This document shows, in pieces, positions 36,569-52,394 of a DNA stretch of 55,337 bases (positions within the stretch are counted from its first letter, which is position 1; each line of letters opens with the position of its first letter). Origin of the DNA: an uncultured Planctomycetia bacterium. Its GTDB lineage: Bacteria; Planctomycetota; Phycisphaerae; FEN-1346; JAACEH01. Under the pieces are notes generated by a model, which did not search any database, had not been told where the DNA came from, and saw nothing but the letters and a program-made list of their open reading frames with translations. Where the stretch lies: contig CAIYVX010000004.1 of assembly GCA_903929765.1 (NCBI GenBank), positions 1 to 55,337 on the forward strand, given 5' to 3'. The translations under genes and the position numbers were made by a program.

Positions 36569-36777
36569 GTCCCTTTATAAATAGCAGGCCAATCCCAAGC
36601 GGTATTTTTTTGATGGAGTTCTCCGGGAGACCATCCCGCCACCGACCCGCGCCGGCAACTCTCGCTATGATAATCCGACCACAACCTGTTTTCAACGATT
36701 TAATGCTCCGGTTCAGGTCGGGGTGCGGCTATGTGCCGCGGCTGCTTGCACACAGGCCGTTTGGTGCGCCGCCAATG

Positions 36778-36809
36778 AAAAAAGGCCGGCCGCTCGCGCG
36801 ACCAGCCTT
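36778..36809 (-). terminator. Orphan rho-independent terminator, minus strand
   Basis: A 12-position stem (36782-36793 with 36798-36809, two mismatches, loop TCGC) is followed on the minus strand by TTTTTT. No convincing minus-strand gene lies upstream (36810-37460), so it may end an unrecognised RNA or be a relic of the mobile element. Confidence 0.65.
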
Positions 36810-36983
36810 CTTCTCTTTGGTGGAGGCAAGCCGAGGTGTACCCAGGCGCGTCCCTCCGGGCCGTGTTCTGGGCACTCCGGGCGAGGGTCGCGTGAGGTCA
36901 AGGCCCCTAAAGGGGACCACACTTCAGGCCCGCGAGTGGCTCTTGACCAAAGTCCTTCGCTTAGGGTGCAGAGTGACAACAGG

Positions 36984-37430
36984 GCGTCCAAGCGGCCAAA
37001 ACACCTCTGGCATGTCGATCTCACCTCCGTCCCCTACATTGACCGGGCCTGCACGGGCCGGGCCACGGCCCAGCGGGCGGAACTCCTCCGCCTCCTGGAC
37101 GACGCCGAGAAAGGACGTGTTGGAACGCTGTGGCTGTTCAAATGGGATCGGCTGGCCCGGAATCTGGGCCAAGCCACGGTCGTCATGGAGCAGATGCAGG
37201 ACTTCGGAGTCGAAGTTCGTGTCGCCAACGGGACCGACCACCCGCTGGTCCGCAACATCGACCTGGCCGTCGCCGAGGACTATTCCCGTGTCTTGGCCGA
37301 GCGCGCTCTCAAGGGCATGGTCAAGCGGGCTGAGCAGGGCCGGTGGGTGGCCCAACGGGTGATGGCCTTGAACGGACGAGTCGCCTCGTCCTCGTTCGGC
37401 ACCAGTTTCTGGAACACGGATCACACATAG
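36984..37430 (+). pseudogene. Chimeric relic: transposase integrase-core scrap joined to a serine recombinase fragment
   Basis: In one open frame, KRPKHLWHVDLTSVP resembles the start of an rve/DDE integrase core. It is directly followed by YIDRACTGRATAQRAELLRLLDDAEKGRV and LWLFKWDRLARNLGQ...VEVRVANG, the middle of a serine recombinase catalytic domain. The recombinase N-terminus with the catalytic Ser and the domain past RAEQG are missing; the tail from RWVAQRV on is unrelated. The rest of 36569-36983 holds no recognisable gene, so this region is a mobile-element graveyard between the Gfo gene and the secretion operon. Confidence 0.6.
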
Positions 37431-42931: not shown

Positions 42932-43354
42932 CTACTTCTTCAGGTTGTCGCTACTGATGTCCGCATCGGCCCCCTCGCCACCCTCGCGGCCGTCGGCGCC
43001 GTAACAGATGACTTCGTAGGGCTTCGTCTTTCCCGGACAGTTGTACTGGTACGGTTTGCCCCAGGGGTCGGTGGGCAGACCCTGCAGCAGCGGCTCGGCA
43101 ATCTTCTCCGTCGGCTGAGTCAGCACGGCCAGGCCCTCGTCGTTGGTAGGATAGCGGCCGTAGGTGGCGTAAAAGGTCTCCAGGGCCTGGACGATGGTCG
43201 CGATCTCGTGACGGGCCGCGCTCTGTTTGGCCTGGGTCAGGTAAGCCGGGACGTAGAGCGTCACCGTGCCGGCCAGGAGGCCGATGATGACCACCACGAT
43301 CATCAGTTCGACCAGCGAAAAACCACGCCGCGATGTTCTTGTTCTAGAGTACAT
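42932..43354 (-). CDS. gspG: Type II secretion major pseudopilin G
   Basis: This 140-residue protein is read from the ATG at 43354 (start MYSRTRTSRRGFSLVELMI). Cleavage falls after Gly with Glu at +5. The C-terminal domain has the GspG-specific FYATYGRYPTNDEGLAVL and DPWGKPYQYNCPG segments, including the calcium-site region. It forms the shaft of the pseudopilus. It overlaps gspF by 11 bp. Confidence 0.92.
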   Translation of the reverse strand: MYSRTRTSRRGFSLVELMIVVVIIGLLAGTVTLYVPAYLTQAKQSAARHEIATIVQALETFYATYGRYPTNDEGLAVLTQPTEKIAEPLLQGLPTDPWGKPYQYNCPGKTKPYEVICYGADGREGGEGADADISSDNLKK

Positions 43355-44549
43355 TGGACGCCTCCATGATCGGCAGTATGATGGCGAAAGCAATCGACCC
43401 GACCAGCAGGGCCAGGATGACGATCAGCAACGGTTCCAGCACGGCCGTCAGCCGCTGGGTGGCCACATCGACTTCCTGGTCGTAGGTCTCGGCCAACTGT
43501 TCGAGCATCTCCTCCAGTTGTCCGCTGTGCTGGCCGACGGCCAGCATCTGAATCACCAGCGGCGCAAAAACGCCGCCGGCTTCCAGCGGCCCGGCCACGT
43601 CGCGGCCCGCGGCCACGGCCGTCTCGTAGTCCTCCAAGGCCCGACCGAAGACGCGATTCTTGAGCGTCCGCCGCGTGATCTGCACGGCCTCGACGAACTG
43701 GAGGCCGCTCCTGAGGAGCGCCGCCAGAACCACGGCCAGCCGCGAGGTGTTCTCCTTGCGCACCAGGTCGCCGAGAACGGGAATCCGAAGCACCAGCCGG
43801 TCGAGCGCCACGCGGGCCTGTTCCTTGCGCAAGGCCATTTTGACGCCAGCCACGGCAGCGCCGACCAGAATCAGGAGCAGCCACCACCAGTGAATCAGAA
43901 AATCGCTGGCGGCTTTGACCGCCTGGGTGATCGCCGGGAGTTTTTTCCCGGCCAGCGTCAGCGTGCCCAGGAGGTTGGGGACGACGAACGTCATCAAGAA
44001 TATCGCCACGGCCACGCCGATGACGCAGACCACGCCGGGGTACATAAGGGCGGTGATCACGCGGCTCCGCAGGCGGCGGGCCTTTTCCTTGAAGACGGCC
44101 AGCCGCTTCAGAGCCACGTCGAGCGACCCTGTGCTCTCGCCGACGCGGACGATGCTGACGCAGAGTTCGTCAAAATAGTTTCCCTGGCGGCTCATGGCCT
44201 CGGCCAGGCTCGTGCCCGCGGCCACCTGGTCGGCCAGTTGCTGAACGACGGTTTTCATCCGGCCGCGCCGCTGTTTGGTCAGGGTCTCGATGGCGTTCAA
44301 GAGCGGTATCCCTGCTCCCAGCAACGTGGCCAACTCTCGGATAAAAGCCGCGACGTCGCCCTGCGCCGCCCGGCCCCGACGGCGCTCCCAGAAGCCCGAC
44401 CCCGGCCCGCGAACCGCCTCGCGGATTTCGGTCACCGTCAGGCCCCGGTCGCGCAACTGGTCGCGGGCCTGCCGCGGCGTGTCCGCGGTGATCGTTCCGC
44501 CGAGGAGACTGGAATCGAGGTCGAGAGCTTTGTATTCAAATACGGCCAT
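43344..44549 (-). CDS. gspF: Type II secretion inner-membrane protein F
   Basis: This 401-residue protein has two GspF/PilC-type helical domains (FIRELATLLGAGIPLLNAIETL in the first; LAALLRSGLQFVEAVQITRRTL in the second) and three transmembrane helices. The family's conserved N-terminus AVFEYKALD is present. It resumes the secretion operon after the three-gene cassette. It is the platform protein that may turn the pseudopilus. Confidence 0.93.
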   Translation of the reverse strand: MAVFEYKALDLDSSLLGGTITADTPRQARDQLRDRGLTVTEIREAVRGPGSGFWERRRGRAAQGDVAAFIRELATLLGAGIPLLNAIETLTKQRRGRMKTVVQQLADQVAAGTSLAEAMSRQGNYFDELCVSIVRVGESTGSLDVALKRLAVFKEKARRLRSRVITALMYPGVVCVIGVAVAIFLMTFVVPNLLGTLTLAGKKLPAITQAVKAASDFLIHWWWLLLILVGAAVAGVKMALRKEQARVALDRLVLRIPVLGDLVRKENTSRLAVVLAALLRSGLQFVEAVQITRRTLKNRVFGRALEDYETAVAAGRDVAGPLEAGGVFAPLVIQMLAVGQHSGQLEEMLEQLAETYDQEVDVATQRLTAVLEPLLIVILALLVGSIAFAIILPIMEASNVL

Positions 44550-44632: not shown

Positions 44633-45856
44633 TCAGAACATCTCGCCGCGCACACCTGTTCTCACGATGACTCTGCCCTGCAAATCAATGAAGGCAATCT
44701 CGGGGCCTTCCGCACCTTTCAGCCACACCTCGGCAATGCCGTCACAGAAATCGCCAACCCATTCGAACTGTGGCGGAATGACCAATTGACCAGCCTTGTT
44801 AACGTAGCCCCAGTGGCCGTCCTGTAGAACACGGGCCACGCCGCCGGAGAACTGGCCGGCGCGCTGAAAGTCGAACGGGATAACCACCTTGCCCGTGGTA
44901 TCGATGAAGCCCCAACGGTCGTTCCGGTCGAAGGCGACCAGATCCCGGTCGGCGGTTTCAGGTAGCTCCTCGGCGTTCATGCTGACCTGGGCTAAGCCCT
45001 CGGAGAAATCGCCGGCACTCTTATAAACTGGCGCGATGACGACAACGCCATTTGTATCTATATAGCCATCGAGCATCTTTGCGCCGGAACCGTCAAAGCT
45101 ATCAACGATCCTGGCACGTCCCTCGGCGAAGGAATCGGCGATCATGATGCGGGCCGGCAGCGCAATCTTGACGTGCCCGGCCTGGTCCACAAAGAAATGT
45201 CGGCCTGCGTCGTCGCCGAAAAGACAGAGGCCGTTGTGATATTGTGGAACGCTCTCAACCGGACGGCCCCAGGTTGGCGGCACTGCTACTGAGCCGTCGC
45301 GGCCCAGAAAACCCCAAAGTCCATGGGCCAGGAAGGCACAGCGTCCTTCGTGGAATGTGCCAAGCTTCTCGTACTTTCCCGGCGGCACAATCCAGCGTCC
45401 GGCGGTGTCAATAATACCTTCCTGGCCGTGGACCTCGACCCAGGCGAGGCCATCAGAGAATGGCGCGGCATAGTCGTATTGAAACGGTATTACCACGCGG
45501 CCGACGGCATCAATATAACCGCATGGACCATGCTCCTGTCTGGAGGCAACAGCCAGGCCTTCTGAGAACTGCATAGCGGTTGCGCCGTTGCCAAATCCTA
45601 GCACGAGATCGGAAACTGTCACATGACGACCGCTTTCCCGGTCGTAGAACAACTGGATTTGCCTATTCTCCCGACCTGAAGAGTTGCGAATAAATGTGTT
45701 AAAAACTATCAAGCGAGATAGGTCGAGCGTCTTTCCACCCTTCTCTTGCTTGGCACCATCCTTCGTCTCAAGAGTGCAGGCGCCAAGCGCGAGTGCCATC
45801 AACCCCGCGAGCAACCATGCGGTCAGACGTGGCCAACGGCGCGGCAAGATAGTCAT
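44633..45856 (-). CDS. WG-repeat lipoprotein in the secretion operon cassette
   Basis: This 407-residue protein has a signal peptide with a lipobox (ALGAC). At least six WG/KWG repeats are seen (GYIDAVGRVVIPFQYDYAAPFSDGLAWV, GFIDTTGKVVIPFDFQRAGQFSGGVARV, GYVNKAGQLVIPPQFEWVGDFCDGIAEV and others). The repeats form a beta-structure thought to mediate binding. It overlaps the Rhs-core gene by 4 bp (ATGA), so the two are translationally coupled, and it lies just before gspF. It could be a surface receptor, a secretion chaperone or an immunity-like partner of the upstream protein. Confidence 0.82.
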   Translation of the reverse strand: MTILPRRWPRLTAWLLAGLMALALGACTLETKDGAKQEKGGKTLDLSRLIVFNTFIRNSSGRENRQIQLFYDRESGRHVTVSDLVLGFGNGATAMQFSEGLAVASRQEHGPCGYIDAVGRVVIPFQYDYAAPFSDGLAWVEVHGQEGIIDTAGRWIVPPGKYEKLGTFHEGRCAFLAHGLWGFLGRDGSVAVPPTWGRPVESVPQYHNGLCLFGDDAGRHFFVDQAGHVKIALPARIMIADSFAEGRARIVDSFDGSGAKMLDGYIDTNGVVVIAPVYKSAGDFSEGLAQVSMNAEELPETADRDLVAFDRNDRWGFIDTTGKVVIPFDFQRAGQFSGGVARVLQDGHWGYVNKAGQLVIPPQFEWVGDFCDGIAEVWLKGAEGPEIAFIDLQGRVIVRTGVRGEMF

Positions 45857-46638
45857 GACGATTCTCCTACACGGTTGAGCCGCGTTCCTTTTCCTGCTTG
45901 CACCGGTGCCCCATCTCCCTTCGCGGTACCTGCCGGTTCGCTTGGGGTGTACCCTGTCCCAGCTTTAGGATACCCCTTTTTCTCGTCATCACTTTTGGGA
46001 TTGGGATCAGCATGCTTGAAGCCTGTATGTGCTGCCGTCGCCACCAGACCGTTAATATACACGGCGCTTAAGTCATCTCCGGGTATACGGTACTGATCGC
46101 ATTCAAGCTGTGACGAGTAGGCATACGACTGCCGCCCATTCAGATGGGCCTCGATAGCGGGACGTTGTTTTTCCACCTCCGGCTGCATCATTTTGATGTG
46201 CCGCTGCTCATGTCCATAGACTTGATCCAGCGATTCCGCGCCGGTGGACGAAGAATCGAGCGTTATAAAAAGTGTTATTGTGGCGGTAATGTCGCTAATG
46301 TACCATTTGCCATCTTTTTCATCACATTTGCATTCTTTTGAGGCGACTTGGACGGCCCATCGTGATTGGCCTCGTTCCCCTGCTTTCGGCATTTTTTGTT
46401 CGTACCAGCCTGGCGCAACAGCCACCGACATTGTTGCAAGCCCATCGGGGTCCACGGAGGCTATAGGATTGCTGTTTGTGTACTGATAGAGGTTACTTCC
46501 GTCCGCGTAGCCCGCCGGATCGCGTTGCGGGAATGCGCCGAGGGCGGGGTTGTACATGGCCGAGGCGTCGGCGGAGAAGAGGGAAAGAACGGCACAGCCC
46601 AACAGGACAGCTACCAAAGGCTTCGTTTTCATTTGCAT
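45853..46638 (-). CDS. Secreted protein with a short Rhs core and an HExxH domain
   Basis: This 261-residue protein has a signal peptide (about 1-27, ending ADASA). Residues 29-67 are the C-terminal core of Rhs/YD proteins (YNPALGAFPQRDPAGYAD...NPIASVDPDGL), without the YD-repeat shell. The rest (about 68-261) has HEQRH at 143-147, an HExxH zinc-metallopeptidase motif, in a context (YGHEQRHIKM) similar to DUF922-type proteases. It could therefore be a secreted protease or toxin tip. The C-terminus is Gly/Lys-rich and disordered. It starts 64 bp after the transglutaminase-like gene. Confidence 0.7.
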   Translation of the reverse strand: MQMKTKPLVAVLLGCAVLSLFSADASAMYNPALGAFPQRDPAGYADGSNLYQYTNSNPIASVDPDGLATMSVAVAPGWYEQKMPKAGERGQSRWAVQVASKECKCDEKDGKWYISDITATITLFITLDSSSTGAESLDQVYGHEQRHIKMMQPEVEKQRPAIEAHLNGRQSYAYSSQLECDQYRIPGDDLSAVYINGLVATAAHTGFKHADPNPKSDDEKKGYPKAGTGYTPSEPAGTAKGDGAPVQAGKGTRLNRVGESS

Positions 46639-46702
46639 TTCCTTTCGAGGGCTATTGTTGGTTCAAATTGGTTCGCTTGTCAAACACGTTTTTCCGTGCT
46701 GA

Positions 46703-47905
46703 TTATGGCCACGGGGACACACCTGGTTGCGGCTGTGGCCCGTTCGGAGGTGGCGGCTGCGAGAGTTGTTCCGTGATCCGCCGGTTATATTCAATGACGG
46801 CCTTTACATCTGGCCTTTGGTCTAAACGATTGTCGGGCCGAGACTGGCTATAGCGCCAGGGTTCGAGGTCGTCGTCTTGCGGCGGGCGGAACCGGACTTC
46901 CGCCTGCCGCATCCAACTCGAATAGGCCGGGTCTTGGGGAATCAGAGCATGCGCGGTGGTATAGGAGTCGAAAGCTTCCTTGGGGTGTCCGTTGTCCAAC
47001 AGGCAATGTCCGCGGGAGGCCAAAAACTCGGCCAATTCCTCTTTCGGCGTGAGGGAAACAAGCCAGCCGTTCGCTTGGACTTCGGCCTCGGTGACCTTGT
47101 GCGGCCAAGTCTTGTAATAGTTGTCGTCGAAGCTGCTGAAGCCGTGGCCGGCCCCCTCGATATTGAGCCGCTCACGCCAAGCCGGGTTGGGGTTGTCTTT
47201 GCCGTCCCACCGGACGAAGAGATGGGCTTTGGTGGTGACCAGCTTCAGGGGATAGCCGAGACGCCGCCCGACGGCGGTATAAAGGACCGGCATCGAAGCG
47301 CAGGTGCCGCCGGGCGTCTGGGCGGTGGTCTGTCCGGGGGCAGGAATCATGCCGTGAATGAAGGCGACACTTGAATCTTTGAAGTCGAAGTTGTCCTTGG
47401 CCGTCATGTTGTACTTCACACCAAGGTCTTCCTGGAGTACTTGGAGAAGCATCGAAGACCGAAGATAAACTTCGCTGTGATGATATTCGTCGGCCGCAAA
47501 CGTGGCGGACAAACGGTATAGGTTCCGCTCCGTCTCAGCCTTCACCTTGGCGGCCCATTCGTCGAGCTTTTTCATGCACTTGGCCACGTCGAGCTTCTCC
47601 GCACCCGGCAGGCCGGTGGCGCAGAGCAGATTCATTTCGGCGATGTCGACGTCCTTGAGTTCTTCCGGCTTCATGGCCAACAACTTGTTAAAAGTGAAGG
47701 CTTTCTGGACGGTTGGGGCAATGGGTTGTGGCGCTGACGCGGTTAGGAAACCGTTGCCGGGGGCGCGAGTGAAATAGCTGACCGCACCAATTGCTGCGAC
47801 CGCGGCCAAGCCCATGAAGAGCCAGAAGGCGTGGCGTTGCAGCCAGGACGCGTCGGCGTGCGTCGGCGTGTAGGGAGGCGAAGATTTGGTCTTCTTTCGG
47901 CTCAT
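46703..47905 (-). CDS. Membrane-anchored transglutaminase-like protein
   Basis: This 400-residue protein has an N-terminal anchor (about 27-46) and a transglutaminase-like domain. Cys202 in GGTCASMPVLYTAVGRRLGYPLKLV, His228 in TTKAHLFVRW and Asp234 form a plausible triad. The form is the SirB1/transglut_core2 type common in Planctomycetota. The C-terminal part has a TPR-like segment (about 275-330) and a Pro-rich tail. It is the first gene of the cassette between gspE and gspF. The reaction could be peptide cross-linking, amide hydrolysis or none. Confidence 0.75.
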   Translation of the reverse strand: MSRKKTKSSPPYTPTHADASWLQRHAFWLFMGLAAVAAIGAVSYFTRAPGNGFLTASAPQPIAPTVQKAFTFNKLLAMKPEELKDVDIAEMNLLCATGLPGAEKLDVAKCMKKLDEWAAKVKAETERNLYRLSATFAADEYHHSEVYLRSSMLLQVLQEDLGVKYNMTAKDNFDFKDSSVAFIHGMIPAPGQTTAQTPGGTCASMPVLYTAVGRRLGYPLKLVTTKAHLFVRWDGKDNPNPAWRERLNIEGAGHGFSSFDDNYYKTWPHKVTEAEVQANGWLVSLTPKEELAEFLASRGHCLLDNGHPKEAFDSYTTAHALIPQDPAYSSWMRQAEVRFRPPQDDDLEPWRYSQSRPDNRLDQRPDVKAVIEYNRRITEQLSQPPPPNGPQPQPGVSPWP

Positions 47906-48025
47906 GAAGCGTCCCCAACGGGGCCAGAAAGCTGACAGGGATTATCCGGTCCACTGTCCGTTGGCGTCAAGACAAATCCATTGCAAGTCATCATGCCTGT
48001 CGCACCTTTGCTATTTTGCTTCATT

Positions 48026-49723
48026 TCAGAACTCATCCCAACTTGACGCTCTGGCCACCTCTTCCATCGTGGTCACGCCGGCGGCGGCCTTGGCCAGGCC
48101 GTCGGCCCGCAGCGTGGTCATGTTGGCGGCCAGGCCGGCGGACTTGATGCTCGAACTCTTGGAGCGTTTGAGAATCAGTTCGCGGATCTCCTCGTCGATG
48201 GTCAGCAGCTCGAAGATGCCGAGCCGCTCGCGGTAGCCCGTGTTCAGGCACTCGGGACAGCCCTGGCCGATGAAGAGTTTTTCCGGGCGGGTTTCCTTAT
48301 CGCCCAGGTGCCAGCTTTCCAGTTCCGCCGCCGTCGGCTGGTGCGGCCGGATGCATTTGGGGCAGATGCGCCGCACCAGGCGCTGGGCCTGAACGCCCAA
48401 CAGGCAACTGGCCAGCAGGTACGGCTCGACGCCCAGATCGAGCATACGCGAAACGGCCCCGGCGGCGTCGTTGGTGTGCAAAGTGGAAAAGACCAGGTGG
48501 CCGGTCAAGGCCGACTGGATGGCCATGCGGGCGGTCTCGCCGTCGCGGATCTCGCCGACCATGATGATGTCGGGATCCTGCCGCAGGACGTGGCGCAGGC
48601 CGCTGGCGAAAGTCATCCCCTTCTTCTCGTTAACCTGGGTCTGGCTGATCCCTTCCAGGCGGTACTCGATGGGGTCTTCCAGGGTCAGGATGTTGTACTC
48701 CTGTGCGCTGATCTCCTGGAGGGCGGCGTAGAGCGTGGTGCTCTTGCCGCTGCCGGTCGGGCCGGTCACGAGGATGATGCCGTGGTCGCGGGCGATCAGG
48801 CTGCGGAAGGTCCGCAGAACGTTGTCGGGCATGCCCAGGTCGGCCAGCTTGTAGAGCCGGGCGCTCTTGTCGAGGAGGCGGATCACGGCCCGTTCGCCGA
48901 AACTGGTCGGCAGTGTGGCGATGCGCAGATCGACGACGCGGTCGCCGACCTCGGCCGTGGCCCGGCCGTCCTGGGCCAGGCGGCGCTCGGCGATGTTCAT
49001 CCCGCCCATGACCTTGATGCGGCTGATGATCTCTTCCTGGAGGGCCTTGGGCGGTTCGAGTACGTCGTAGAGGACGCCGTCGACGCGGAAACGGATGATC
49101 AGCCGGTCTTCCGTCGGCTGAACGTGAACGTCCGAGGCCCTGCGTTTGATCGCCTCCAGGAGCGTCAGGTTGACCAACTTGATTACCGGCGCCCGGGCGG
49201 CGACGTCGAGCAAGTCCTCAGTCCCGGCGGCGGCGCTGAGCAGATCGGTTCGCAGCGCTTCGCCGTCGAGTTCCTGGATGACCTGTTCGGTCTGGCCGGC
49301 CTGCTGCTGGTAGGCGGCGTTGATGGTTCGCAGGATTTCTTCGCGCGGGGCGAGGATTGGCCGCACGCGTTTGTCGAGGATCTTGCCCAGCGTCTGAAGG
49401 TGCGGCCATTGGGCCAGGTCCGCCAGGGCCACCGAGACGTCGCCGTTCTCCCCCGCCAGGCCGATCAGACCGTGACGGCGGGCGTAGGCTATTGGGACGG
49501 CCTGGAGAAAAGAGTGGCTGACCGGCAGGTGGGCCAGCTTCTCGGCGAAAGGCAGGCCCAGCGTCTCCGCCGTGGCCCGAGCCACGGTCAGGTCGGAGTG
49601 TTCCATCTGCCGGGCCTGGGCCGGCGAAGTGCATTCGGCGTCGCGGTGGGGCGAACCGGGCGCAGCCGTTTCGTCGAGCAATGCTCGCATGGCGACGGCG
49701 AACTTGTCGTTGACCTGAGGCAT
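48026..49723 (-). CDS. gspE: Type II secretion ATPase E
   Basis: This 565-residue protein has N-terminal N1E-type domains (about 1-170), Walker A GPTGSGKST, the Asp box (LTLEDPIEY), Walker B (VGEIRDGETA) and the zinc tetracysteine CPKC...CPEC near the C-terminus. It powers pseudopilus assembly. It starts 10 bp after gspD. The following 120 bp hold no gene. Confidence 0.95.
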   Translation of the reverse strand: MPQVNDKFAVAMRALLDETAAPGSPHRDAECTSPAQARQMEHSDLTVARATAETLGLPFAEKLAHLPVSHSFLQAVPIAYARRHGLIGLAGENGDVSVALADLAQWPHLQTLGKILDKRVRPILAPREEILRTINAAYQQQAGQTEQVIQELDGEALRTDLLSAAAGTEDLLDVAARAPVIKLVNLTLLEAIKRRASDVHVQPTEDRLIIRFRVDGVLYDVLEPPKALQEEIISRIKVMGGMNIAERRLAQDGRATAEVGDRVVDLRIATLPTSFGERAVIRLLDKSARLYKLADLGMPDNVLRTFRSLIARDHGIILVTGPTGSGKSTTLYAALQEISAQEYNILTLEDPIEYRLEGISQTQVNEKKGMTFASGLRHVLRQDPDIIMVGEIRDGETARMAIQSALTGHLVFSTLHTNDAAGAVSRMLDLGVEPYLLASCLLGVQAQRLVRRICPKCIRPHQPTAAELESWHLGDKETRPEKLFIGQGCPECLNTGYRERLGIFELLTIDEEIRELILKRSKSSSIKSAGLAANMTTLRADGLAKAAAGVTTMEEVARASSWDEF

Positions 49724-49733
49724 GATTCACTTC

Positions 49734-52394
49734 TTATTGCATGACCAACGGGTGACTGGTCGGGAACTGGGCCTTCTGGTCGGACTTGGCGCTGTCGATG
49801 TCCGACAGGTATTTGAGGTCCGAGAACTGGTCGTCCCGCAGGATGATCGGCTGGAGGAAGACGAACAGCGTGCTCTCGTCGCTGGTTTTGGTCTGACTGC
49901 TGAACAGCAAACCCAGCAGCGGGACGTCGCCCAGGAATGGAATCTTGGTCTTGGTGTCGCTCAAGTCCTTGCGTGTCAGGCCGCCGATGACCACGGTGTA
50001 ACCGTCCGGGACGGTGACCTCGCTGGAGATGGTGTTGGTCTGCCGTGGCGGCGGGATGCCGGCCGCCCCCTGGCCGGTGAAGCTGTTTAGGGTGAACGAG
50101 TAGTTGAGCAGCAGGTGGTCGCCCTCGGCGATGTGCGGCGTGACCGTCACGGTGGTGCCGGCGCTGGCGTAACCGGCGAAGGCCGTGGTCGCGACGGTCT
50201 GTGAGGCGTTGGTGCTGGTGAAAGGCGCTTCGGCCACACTGGAAAGGTTCCCTGTGGCGTTGTCGTTGGTCAGGATCTTGGGGGCCGAGACGACCTTCGA
50301 GTGACCGTCGGAGGCCAGAGCCTGCATGACTACGCTCACCGTACTGGGATCCAGGAGAATGCCGTTGAAACCAGAGCCCGGGGTGAGCGTGAGCGACCCC
50401 GTGCTGGGATCGACCGTGCCCAGACCGAAGGAACTGAAGGTCAGGTAGCGGCCCTGGTCGGCTTTAGATGTCTTGGTCAGTTGAACGCCCAGAGAGAAAT
50501 TGTGGCTGGTGTCCAGGGTGACCATCGTCACGGCGATCAGTACCTGGGGGCGCCGTTTATCGAGCATGGCGATCAGCCGGGCGTAGGTGGCCTGCACGGC
50601 CGGCGGGGCGACGATGATCAGGGTGTTGGTGTTGGGATCGGAAGTGATCGTGGCATCTTTGGTGGTAATCGTCGCCGCCCCTTCGCCGCCGCCGAACCCG
50701 CCGCTGTTTTGGGCAGAGGCGAACTGATTTGCGGTCGGGCCACCGGACTGCAACCCCTGCGTCGTATCCCGGTAGAAAGGCGGCGTGTTGGCCGCCTGGC
50801 CCGGGGGCGCCGGAGGCTGGTTGGGACCGGTGAACTGCGGCACCGGCAGGATCGAGGTCGGCGACGGCAGCATCGAGACGGAAGCGGGGGCGACGACGGA
50901 GGGGCCGGAGCCGCCGACCAACCCGGTCGTCAGGCCGCCCTTGGCCACGCCCTCGAGGCTGTGGATCGTCCCCAGCACCTGGGCCGCCGTGGTGTTCATC
51001 AGCTTGTAGAACCGCATGGAGCTCTGGGCCTCGGTCGGGGCGATGTCCAAGTCGCGCTTCAGTTTATCGAGGTGCTGGTGCACGTTGGCCGTGGCCGTGA
51101 CGATCAGCGTGCCTGACTCGCCGTCGATGCTCGACTTGTACCGTTCATTGGCCCCGGCGAAGCTCTTGGCCAGGGCGTCGATCCGCTGCGGGGCGACATG
51201 GCGGAACTGGTAGCTCCGCGTTTCGGCGTTGTCGGGCACGTCCAACAGGGCAATCAGCCGCAGGGCTTCGGTCGCCGCCTCGCCGACCGAGACCACGACG
51301 ATCTGGTTCTCGCGCGCTTCGGTGGTCAACGTCAACCGCTTCTGGTTCTCCCGACCCGCGACGCGGTCCTCCTCGGCCATCAGGGCGGTGACTTTCTTGG
51401 CCAGTTCGTCGGCGTCCCAGTGCTTGACTGGGACGAACTGGAGCGTGGTCTCCGGCCCGGAGGTCTCCAACAGTTCGATCATCTTGTCCATGCGGCGGAT
51501 CTTGTCGGCATAGTCGGTAACGAAAAGCAGCCCCCGGTCAGCCATGGAGAAAACGTTGCCGCCGGGTTTGGAGAGGAACGGCTGGATGACCTGTTCGGCC
51601 CGGGTCGTCGAGGTTCGCTTCAGCGCGAAGACCTGGGTGATGACCGTGGTGGCCGCCGTCCCGGCCAGGGCCTGCTGGTCTTCGGTCATCCCCTTGGTGA
51701 CCGCCAACAGTTCCTGGTTGGCGATGATCCGTTTCCAGCCCGGCTGGTCGGCGTCGACCAGGGCCAGGCCGGTCGTCTTGAGGACGCATTGCAGGAGGTC
51801 CATCAGGGAATCCTGGGGAATCTTGCTCGGCGAGATGACCGTGACTTTCCGGTGGACCAGGGAGTCGTCGTAGAGGATGTTCAGGCCCTGACGTTTGCTC
51901 ACAAAGTCGATGAGCATCTTGACCTCGAAGCTTTCGGGGAAATTCAGTTGCACCAGGTTCTTCCCGCCGGCCTCGGCCGCTGACTTCACCGCGGCGGCCG
52001 GCTCGCCGGACAACACCTGCCCGGCCAAAGACGGAGCAGGTGCCTTCTGGCCGGAAGCGACCTGGGCTGCTGTAGTAGCCGCCTGGCTGCTTACGGAAGG
52101 TAAAGTCTCTACCGGGGTGGCCGGACTTGAAGTCGATTGGCCGAGCGATTTTGCCACCGCCTTTTGCCAAGCTTCTTGTGAAGTTGCCATCGACCTGCCC
52201 GAGGCAACCTGTGCTGCTGTCGAGGAAGGAAGTCCTGCGGCGGATGCGGATGACGAAACAACGGTTCCGGACGGGTACAGCGGGGGGCGTTCCGAGTTGC
52301 TCCGAGAGGCACTCGTCGCTGTTTGGCCCGGAGCCAGAGAAGTCATCGCACCCAGCAGTGACAGCAGGCAGAAGAATGGGAGAAGATGTTTCAT
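49734..52394 (-). CDS. gspD: Type II secretion secretin D
   Basis: This 886-residue protein has a signal peptide (about 1-23), a long Ser/Ala-rich segment (about 24-140) that repeats the motif AAQVASG, N0 and N1-N3 domains (LDFVSKRQ-like start near 162), and the C-terminal secretin domain (VTMVTLDTSHNFSLGVQL; VPDGYTVVIGGLTRKDLSDTKTKIPFLGDVPLLGLLFSS). It forms the outer-membrane pore. The Ser/Ala-rich insert is not part of typical GspD. It overlaps the MauE-fusion gene by 4 bp. Confidence 0.93.
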   Translation of the reverse strand: MKHLLPFFCLLSLLGAMTSLAPGQTATSASRSNSERPPLYPSGTVVSSSASAAGLPSSTAAQVASGRSMATSQEAWQKAVAKSLGQSTSSPATPVETLPSVSSQAATTAAQVASGQKAPAPSLAGQVLSGEPAAAVKSAAEAGGKNLVQLNFPESFEVKMLIDFVSKRQGLNILYDDSLVHRKVTVISPSKIPQDSLMDLLQCVLKTTGLALVDADQPGWKRIIANQELLAVTKGMTEDQQALAGTAATTVITQVFALKRTSTTRAEQVIQPFLSKPGGNVFSMADRGLLFVTDYADKIRRMDKMIELLETSGPETTLQFVPVKHWDADELAKKVTALMAEEDRVAGRENQKRLTLTTEARENQIVVVSVGEAATEALRLIALLDVPDNAETRSYQFRHVAPQRIDALAKSFAGANERYKSSIDGESGTLIVTATANVHQHLDKLKRDLDIAPTEAQSSMRFYKLMNTTAAQVLGTIHSLEGVAKGGLTTGLVGGSGPSVVAPASVSMLPSPTSILPVPQFTGPNQPPAPPGQAANTPPFYRDTTQGLQSGGPTANQFASAQNSGGFGGGEGAATITTKDATITSDPNTNTLIIVAPPAVQATYARLIAMLDKRRPQVLIAVTMVTLDTSHNFSLGVQLTKTSKADQGRYLTFSSFGLGTVDPSTGSLTLTPGSGFNGILLDPSTVSVVMQALASDGHSKVVSAPKILTNDNATGNLSSVAEAPFTSTNASQTVATTAFAGYASAGTTVTVTPHIAEGDHLLLNYSFTLNSFTGQGAAGIPPPRQTNTISSEVTVPDGYTVVIGGLTRKDLSDTKTKIPFLGDVPLLGLLFSSQTKTSDESTLFVFLQPIILRDDQFSDLKYLSDIDSAKSDQKAQFPTSHPLVMQ

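What the first reader, a model, noticed from the sequence alone, without database searches (positions are those of the whole stretch)
44633..47905. Three-gene cassette embedded between gspE and gspF
In one long type II secretion operon, a transglutaminase-like protein, a secreted Rhs-core/HExxH protein and a WG-repeat lipoprotein stand between gspE and gspF, genes that normally lie together. All three have export signals or membrane anchors, and two overlap by 4 bp. Operon-embedded exported proteins are good candidates for substrates, processing factors or a toxin with a lipoprotein partner.
Basis: partly seen in the sequence, partly recalled or inferred. Interest (0 to 1): 0.72.

Follow-up and report, generated by a model that had tools for sequence, protein, structure and literature searches.

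The report
Toxin-immunity cassette inside secretion operon
Three genes sitting between two secretion-machine genes of a planctomycete are an inserted, exchangeable cassette that most likely encodes an exported toxin, its protective lipoprotein, and a membrane-bound enzyme-like partner that accompanies such toxins throughout Planctomycetota and Verrucomicrobiota, a gene pairing I could not find described.

Summary
In detail: three intact genes split gspE from gspF, 3.5 kb where 26 relatives have the two genes adjacent. They are not part of the secretion machine. The insert has lower GC3 (0.55-0.72 against 0.77-0.87) and its own promoter-like sites. In 75 of 93 non-redundant loci, the first gene (membrane-anchored transglutaminase-like plus TPR) is followed directly by a gene like the second: a signal peptide, the last ~40 residues of an Rhs/Tc cocoon including its self-cleavage motif, and an unrelated C-terminal domain. 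Those C-termini include Ntox44, PT-HINT, Tle1-like lipase, PLA2, SLT, M35 and DUF922 domains. A short, unrelated, often envelope-targeted gene usually follows, as an immunity gene would. The window's metalloprotease-like C-terminus occurs in 2 of 397 genomes, both times followed by the WG-repeat lipoprotein. Anchored TGL goes with exported Rhs and unanchored TGL with unexported Rhs (46/2/0/19), so the two share a compartment. The TGL model resembles human menin but keeps Cys and His. Best reading: a polymorphic-toxin cassette with a dedicated TGL partner that handles the Rhs tag (inferred). The type II secretion context is probably incidental, though two other cassettes touch such genes. Toxicity, immunity and TGL activity are untested.

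The parts
46703..47905 (-). TGL: inner-membrane-anchored Transglut_core2 + TPR protein; C202, H228, N248, D261 invariant in 34/34 relatives; menin-like predicted fold
45853..46638 (-). Exported Rhs-minicore protein: signal peptide + 40-aa Rhs autoprotease tail + C-terminal HEQRH (DUF922-like) domain; predicted toxin
46558..46638 (-). signal peptide, residues 1-27
   Evidence: sequence; conserved across relatives
46438..46557 (-). Rhs minicore, residues 28-67 (RDP ... PxxxxDPxGL), ungapped match to the end of the TccC3 and YenC2 cocoons
45856..46437 (-). C-terminal variable domain, residues 68-261; found in only 2 of 397 class genomes
46198..46212 (-). HEQRH zinc-metallopeptidase-type motif
44633..45856 (-). 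WG-repeat lipoprotein (lipobox LGAC, C27); predicted cognate immunity protein
47941..47970 (-). promoter-like TTGACG-18-GATAAT in the gspE-TGL spacer, 36 nt before the TGL start codon
   Evidence: promoter-like sites precede 30/94 TGL genes against 9% in shuffles
46654..46683 (-). promoter-like TTGACA-18-AACAAT in the spacer before the Rhs-minicore gene
48026..49723 (-). gspE, upstream flank of the insertion
43344..44549 (-). gspF, downstream flank of the insertion

Best explanation
A laterally exchanged polymorphic-toxin cassette has inserted between gspE and gspF. Gene 2 is exported by Sec (signal peptide). The mature protein starts with the last 40 residues of an Rhs/Tc cocoon, including its self-cleavage motif, and ends in a metalloprotease-like toxin domain acting on envelope or extracellular targets. 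Gene 3, a WG-repeat lipoprotein, is the cognate immunity protein that protects the producer in the periplasm. Gene 1 (TGL), anchored in the inner membrane with a Cys-His papain/transglutaminase-type site and TPR repeats facing the periplasm, is a dedicated partner that recognises the Rhs minicore and processes, cross-links or anchors the toxin. Shown: gene structure, pairing, variability of gene 2's C-terminus and of gene 3, and matched compartments of TGL and Rhs protein. Inferred: toxicity, immunity, TGL catalysis and its action on the minicore, and how the toxin leaves the cell (a T2SS is possible; no T6SS VipA was found).
For: 75 of 93 assessable non-redundant TGL loci have an Rhs-minicore gene directly downstream, 20 with the exact 4-bp overlap. 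N-terminus conserved, C-terminus not; both autoprotease aspartates are in at least 112/118 minicores. C-terminal domains are typical of toxins: Ntox44, PT-HINT, Tle1-like, PLA2, SLT, M35, C25, protein-glutamine gamma-glutamyltransferase, DUF922. Third genes are unrelated to each other and 47/68 have an SP, TM or lipobox against 149/424 other genes; lipobox alone p=2e-4. The window C-terminus and WG lipoprotein co-occur in both genomes that hold that C-terminus. TM-TGL/SP-Rhs 46, TM/no SP 2, no TM/SP 0, neither 19, p=9e-15 (first pass 45/1/6/21). The family is patchy (43/397 class genomes), the insert has deviant codon usage, and the window TGL's nearest kin are from another family while its toxin's kin are in the same family, so modules exchange. 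No VipA (T6SS) in this genome.
Against: No toxicity, immunity or enzymatic data. The compartment match rests on few independent switches: 5 on the best tree, only 2 on supported branches, both concordant; six ambiguous rows were dropped by hand. Signal of the toxin and signal of the third gene do not correlate (p=0.55). 15 TGL loci have no recognisable Rhs partner and 3 have it upstream. The window C-terminus misses Pfam DUF922 itself; only its relatives hit, two of the three below the cutoff, and its model is poor. A close WG relative sits in a lipoprotein cluster without an Rhs toxin (L287).
Confidence: 0.66

Rival explanations
1. Secreted degradative enzymes, not toxins: TGL acts like a sortase or exosortase that processes or anchors a family of Rhs-tagged exported hydrolases on the cell surface; third genes are accessory chaperones or lipoproteins.
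For: Many C-termini are hydrolases (lipase, PLA2, peptidases, SLT); TGL is membrane-anchored with an intact Cys/His and pairs with a fixed N-terminal tag.
Against: Ntox44 and PT-HINT domains, extreme C-terminal turnover, and unrelated short third genes that follow the toxin type are hallmarks of polymorphic toxins; SP-less versions with cytosolic TGL exist.
Confidence: 0.17
2. Type II secretion substrate set: the cassette is encoded in the T2SS operon because the Rhs-minicore protein is exported by this T2SS and TGL couples it to the machine.
For: Window (gspE|gspF), L170 (gspK|gspL, TGL overlapping gspL by 8 bp) and L106 (gspD remnant overlapping TGL) all touch T2SS genes; Sec-exported folded proteins are what T2SS carries.
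Against: The other TGL loci show no adjacent T2SS gene (L223 has one 5 kb away); gspE-gspF is uninterrupted in relatives; a rough expectation from T2SS operon density is about 0.8 such loci, so 2 besides the window is not significant; SP-less versions cannot use it.
Confidence: 0.1
3. Inert orphan Rhs C-terminus trapped with unrelated neighbours, kept only as a recombination reservoir.
For: Orphan Rhs C-termini with short core homology are known; many SP-less minicores occur in TGL-lacking genomes.
Against: Signal peptide, intact frames, 4-bp couplings, a conserved TGL partner with invariant residues, and matched compartments.
Confidence: 0.07

Closest known systems
Polymorphic toxin systems (Zhang et al. 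2012, PMC3482391), Sec/T2SS-exported class with RHS
   Same: Conserved N-terminal delivery/pretoxin part, exchangeable C-terminal toxin, adjacent immunity gene, arrays of further pairs (L078, L094); Planctomycetes were already noted there as carriers; inactive transglutaminase domains fused N-terminally to RHS toxins were described
   Different: The RHS part is only the 40-residue end of the cocoon, placed directly after the signal peptide; the transglutaminase is a separate protein with Cys and His intact, plus TPR, encoded immediately upstream
Rhs/Tc toxins (TccC3, YenC2, P. protegens RhsA; PMC8765631)
   Same: Residues 28-67 align without gaps to the autoprotease tail up to the cleavage residue
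   Different: No cocoon, no PAAR/VgrG or TcA/TcB; whether 40 residues can self-cleave is unknown
VgrG2b metallopeptidase / PA0261 (PMC6899460)
   Same: A metallopeptidase toxin acting in the periplasm with a dedicated immunity protein (from the search result's title and abstract, and my own knowledge)
   Different: T6SS-delivered; no sequence relation was tested
Human menin
   Same: Predicted TGL fold matches over 230-257 residues (Z about 15, rmsd 4-5 A), same order of transglutaminase-like and TPR parts
   Different: Menin is reported as eukaryotic only and the human protein lacks the catalytic Cys (PMC10318531); sequence identity about 10%
SirB1-like Transglut_core2 proteins
   Same: PF13369 hit in 29/34 members, TPR at the C-terminus; one member weakly hits SirB1
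   Different: TM anchor and a near-constant Rhs neighbour; the family's function is unknown (PMC10318531)

Membership tests
Polymorphic toxin system | conserved N-terminal part with non-homologous C-terminal domains | tested here: met
   minicore conserved, C-termini not alignable
Polymorphic toxin system | C-terminal domains belong to known toxin families | tested here: met
   Ntox44, PT-HINT, Tle1-like, PLA2 and others in relatives; the window's own C-terminus has no Pfam hit
Polymorphic toxin system | cognate immunity gene immediately downstream | tested here: inconclusive
   position, diversity and co-occurrence fit; protection not tested
Polymorphic toxin system | toxic to non-immune cells | not testable with these tools
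   needs expression
Full Rhs/Tc toxin | YD-repeat cocoon of roughly 600 residues or more | tested here: not met
   261-aa protein holds only residues 37-76 of the 76-residue core-associated model
Full Rhs/Tc toxin | aspartyl autoprotease motif PxxxxDPxGL with upstream RDP aspartate | tested here: met
   P58-D63-L67 and D40
Type II secretion system component | conserved position in the gsp operon of relatives | tested here: not met
DUF922 (PF06037) | model match above the gathering score | tested here: not met
   no hit for the window; relatives at E 0.009, 3.6e-5 and 5e-14, only the last above the cutoff
Transglut_core2 (PF13369) | model match above the gathering score | tested here: inconclusive
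   window 19.6 bits against a cutoff of 23.5; 29/34 members match at E<=0.05, several above the cutoff
Menin (PF05053) | fold: transglutaminase-like plus TPR arrangement | tested here: met
   top 39 rows are menin at Z 13.6-15, next 8.6
Menin (PF05053) | sequence family match | tested here: not met
   no Menin hit in Pfam scans

The most novel reading that the evidence does not exclude
TGL is a dedicated tag enzyme, a catalytically competent bacterial menin-fold protein that binds the Rhs minicore in the pocket between its TPR and transglutaminase parts and cuts it at or near DPxG|L, or links it to the envelope or a carrier. This would be a TGL/Rhs-tag delivery route used across Planctomycetota and Verrucomicrobiota, in an exported version and a cytosolic version.
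Probability: 0.33. Interest if true: 0.78.

Novelty: new variant of a known kind. Interest (0 to 1): 0.62.

Why it matters
It points to an undescribed, widespread toxin-immunity cassette in groups whose antagonism is little studied, gives a first genomic context for the Transglut_core2 family (function unknown), and offers a bacterial protein with the menin fold and intact active-site residues, relevant to where menin came from. It also shows how an Rhs toxin can do without its cocoon: only the 40-residue autoprotease tail is kept.

Tried and rejected
Functional T2SS link: not rejected outright, but position is not conserved and adjacency is not above a rough chance estimate. Toxin signal against third-gene signal: no correlation (an earlier version, used a faulty landmark and is discarded). 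In-trans test: signal-peptide minicores away from a TGL locus were counted by hand in 3/34 TGL+ and 1/34 TGL- genomes, too few to tell. Structure of the Rhs protein: pLDDT 44, unusable. PADLOC: no hits. T6SS (VipA): none in this genome. Phylum-wide TGL search: few true members, the rest are short transglutaminase-domain hits. Sequence search of TGL against solved structures: only TPR proteins. Papers: no description of this pair found, in an open-access library only.

Full report
Observation. The gene order gspD-gspE-TGL-Rhs-WG-gspF-gspG is real and on one strand. The three extra genes are intact. Gene 2 and gene 3 share ATGA; gene 1 and gene 2 are 64 bp apart; the outer spacers are 120 and 83 bp. 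In 26 relatives where both genes could be seen, gspF follows gspE with none of these genes between; in the same-family genome G030 the gap is about 7 bp. The insert stands out in GC (0.54-0.59 against 0.64-0.68) and in GC3 and codon usage, and carries promoter-like sites in both spacers upstream of genes 1 and 2. Promoter-like sites precede 30 of 94 TGL genes against 9% in shuffles (mononucleotide shuffles, so indicative only).

What the genes are. Gene 1: TM helix, then a Transglut_core2-like domain and TPR. C202, H228, N248 and D261 are invariant in 34 aligned members; which residue completes the triad is inferred. The AlphaFold2 model (pLDDT 86) matches human menin over 230-257 residues at Z about 15, well above the next fold (PNGase, 8.6). 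Foldseek alone gave only weak E-values (best 0.048), and the match may simply be what Transglut_core2 plus TPR proteins look like. Gene 2: signal peptide, then residues 28-67 that align without a gap to the end of the TccC3 and YenC2 cocoons, including both aspartates of the Rhs autoprotease and PxxxxDPxGL (for RhsA: PMC8765631), then a C-terminal domain with HEQRH. Gene 3: lipobox and five WG repeats.

Comparative evidence. TGL was found in 43 of 397 genomes of the class and in named records of Planctomycetota, Verrucomicrobiota and a few other bins (bin labels may be wrong). Of 98 non-redundant TGL ORFs, 5 lie at a contig edge; 75 of the other 93 have an Rhs-minicore gene directly downstream, 3 have it upstream, 15 have none recognised. 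118 non-redundant minicore proteins were collected; the C-terminal part has a median of 213 residues and no common family. Pfam names the hits Ntox44, PT-HINT, SLT, Tle1-like lipase, PLA2, M35, C25, gamma-glutamyltransferase, DUF922 and others; 11 of 118 hold HExxH. Some loci hold arrays of several minicore genes (L078, L094). Third genes are short and mutually unrelated, enriched for export signals, some with WG, WD40 or LRR repeats.

The window's own pair. The C-terminal domain occurs in only 2 of 397 class genomes, the window's and G030, and in both the WG lipoprotein follows with an overlap. In G030 the triad is not in a T2SS operon; a paralogous T2SS lies about 17 kb away on the other strand. 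The closest third WG relative, in G140, stands next to two other lipoprotein genes without an Rhs toxin, as an orphan immunity gene might.

Partnership of TGL and Rhs protein. If the two proteins meet, they should be in the same compartment. In 67 pairs with clear starts, 46 have an anchored TGL and exported Rhs, 19 have neither signal, 2 have an anchored TGL only, and none an exported Rhs only (first automatic pass 45/1/6/21; six ambiguous rows were dropped and one corrected after inspection). The label changes 5 times on the best tree but only 2 independent pairs lie on supported branches, both concordant, so the tree-corrected test cannot reach significance. The TGL tree also shows exchange: the window TGL is nearest to TGLs from other families, whereas its toxin and lipoprotein are nearest to G030, whose TGL is distant.

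Type II secretion. L170 has a TGL, a minicore gene and a 153-aa ORF between gspK and gspL, and L106 has a gspD remnant overlapping TGL. With roughly 2-3 T2SS-like operons per genome I estimate about 0.8 such loci by chance among the sampled ones, so two is not significant; the link stays open. The genome has no VipA, so Sec, perhaps followed by a T2SS, is the likely export route.

Known and new. Zhang et al. 2012 (PMC3482391) describe Sec/T2SS-exported RHS toxins and inactive transglutaminase domains fused to them. I found no description of a separate TGL gene with intact active-site residues paired with signal-peptide Rhs minicores. Periplasmic toxins with immunity proteins are established elsewhere (VgrG2b/PA0261, PMC6899460). 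I therefore class this as a new variant of polymorphic toxin systems.

Limits. Genes were called by a simple ORF script; signals by hydrophobicity rules, not SignalP; non-redundancy by shared sequence cores, not by clustering. Family membership was defined from the window's TGL, so the pairing rate holds for this subfamily. No experiment supports toxicity, immunity or TGL chemistry.

Noticed in passing
36723-37430, + strand: ORF with serine-recombinase-like text (..LWLFKWDRLARNLGQ..) just outside the downstream end of the T2SS operon; possibly a degraded mobile-element remnant.
   Followed up: no
L170 1-10995 (JAITQV010000489.1): Second, separate case of a TGL plus Rhs-minicore cassette inside a T2SS operon, between gspK and gspL, with TGL overlapping gspL by 8 bp.
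   Followed up: partly
L106 8539-10397: Internally shortened gspD-like ORF overlapping the 5' end of a TGL gene whose partner has a PLA2-like C-terminus.
   Followed up: partly
G033, G004: Genomes without TGL that hold 35-41 Rhs minicore matches without the signal-peptide part, mostly in short ORFs: very large orphan Rhs sets.
   Followed up: no
L287 195-2688: Three consecutive lipoprotein-like genes, the last a WG protein 36-41% identical to the window's, with no Rhs toxin: possible immunity cluster.
   Followed up: partly
52391-54085, - strand: MauE-like plus DUF1573/Ig-like fusion protein overlapping gspD at the head of the T2SS operon.
   Followed up: no
G000:C79 about 45013-52205: Same genome holds long Rhs ORFs (open frame 2058 aa), i.e. 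full-length Rhs proteins besides the minicore form.
   Followed up: no
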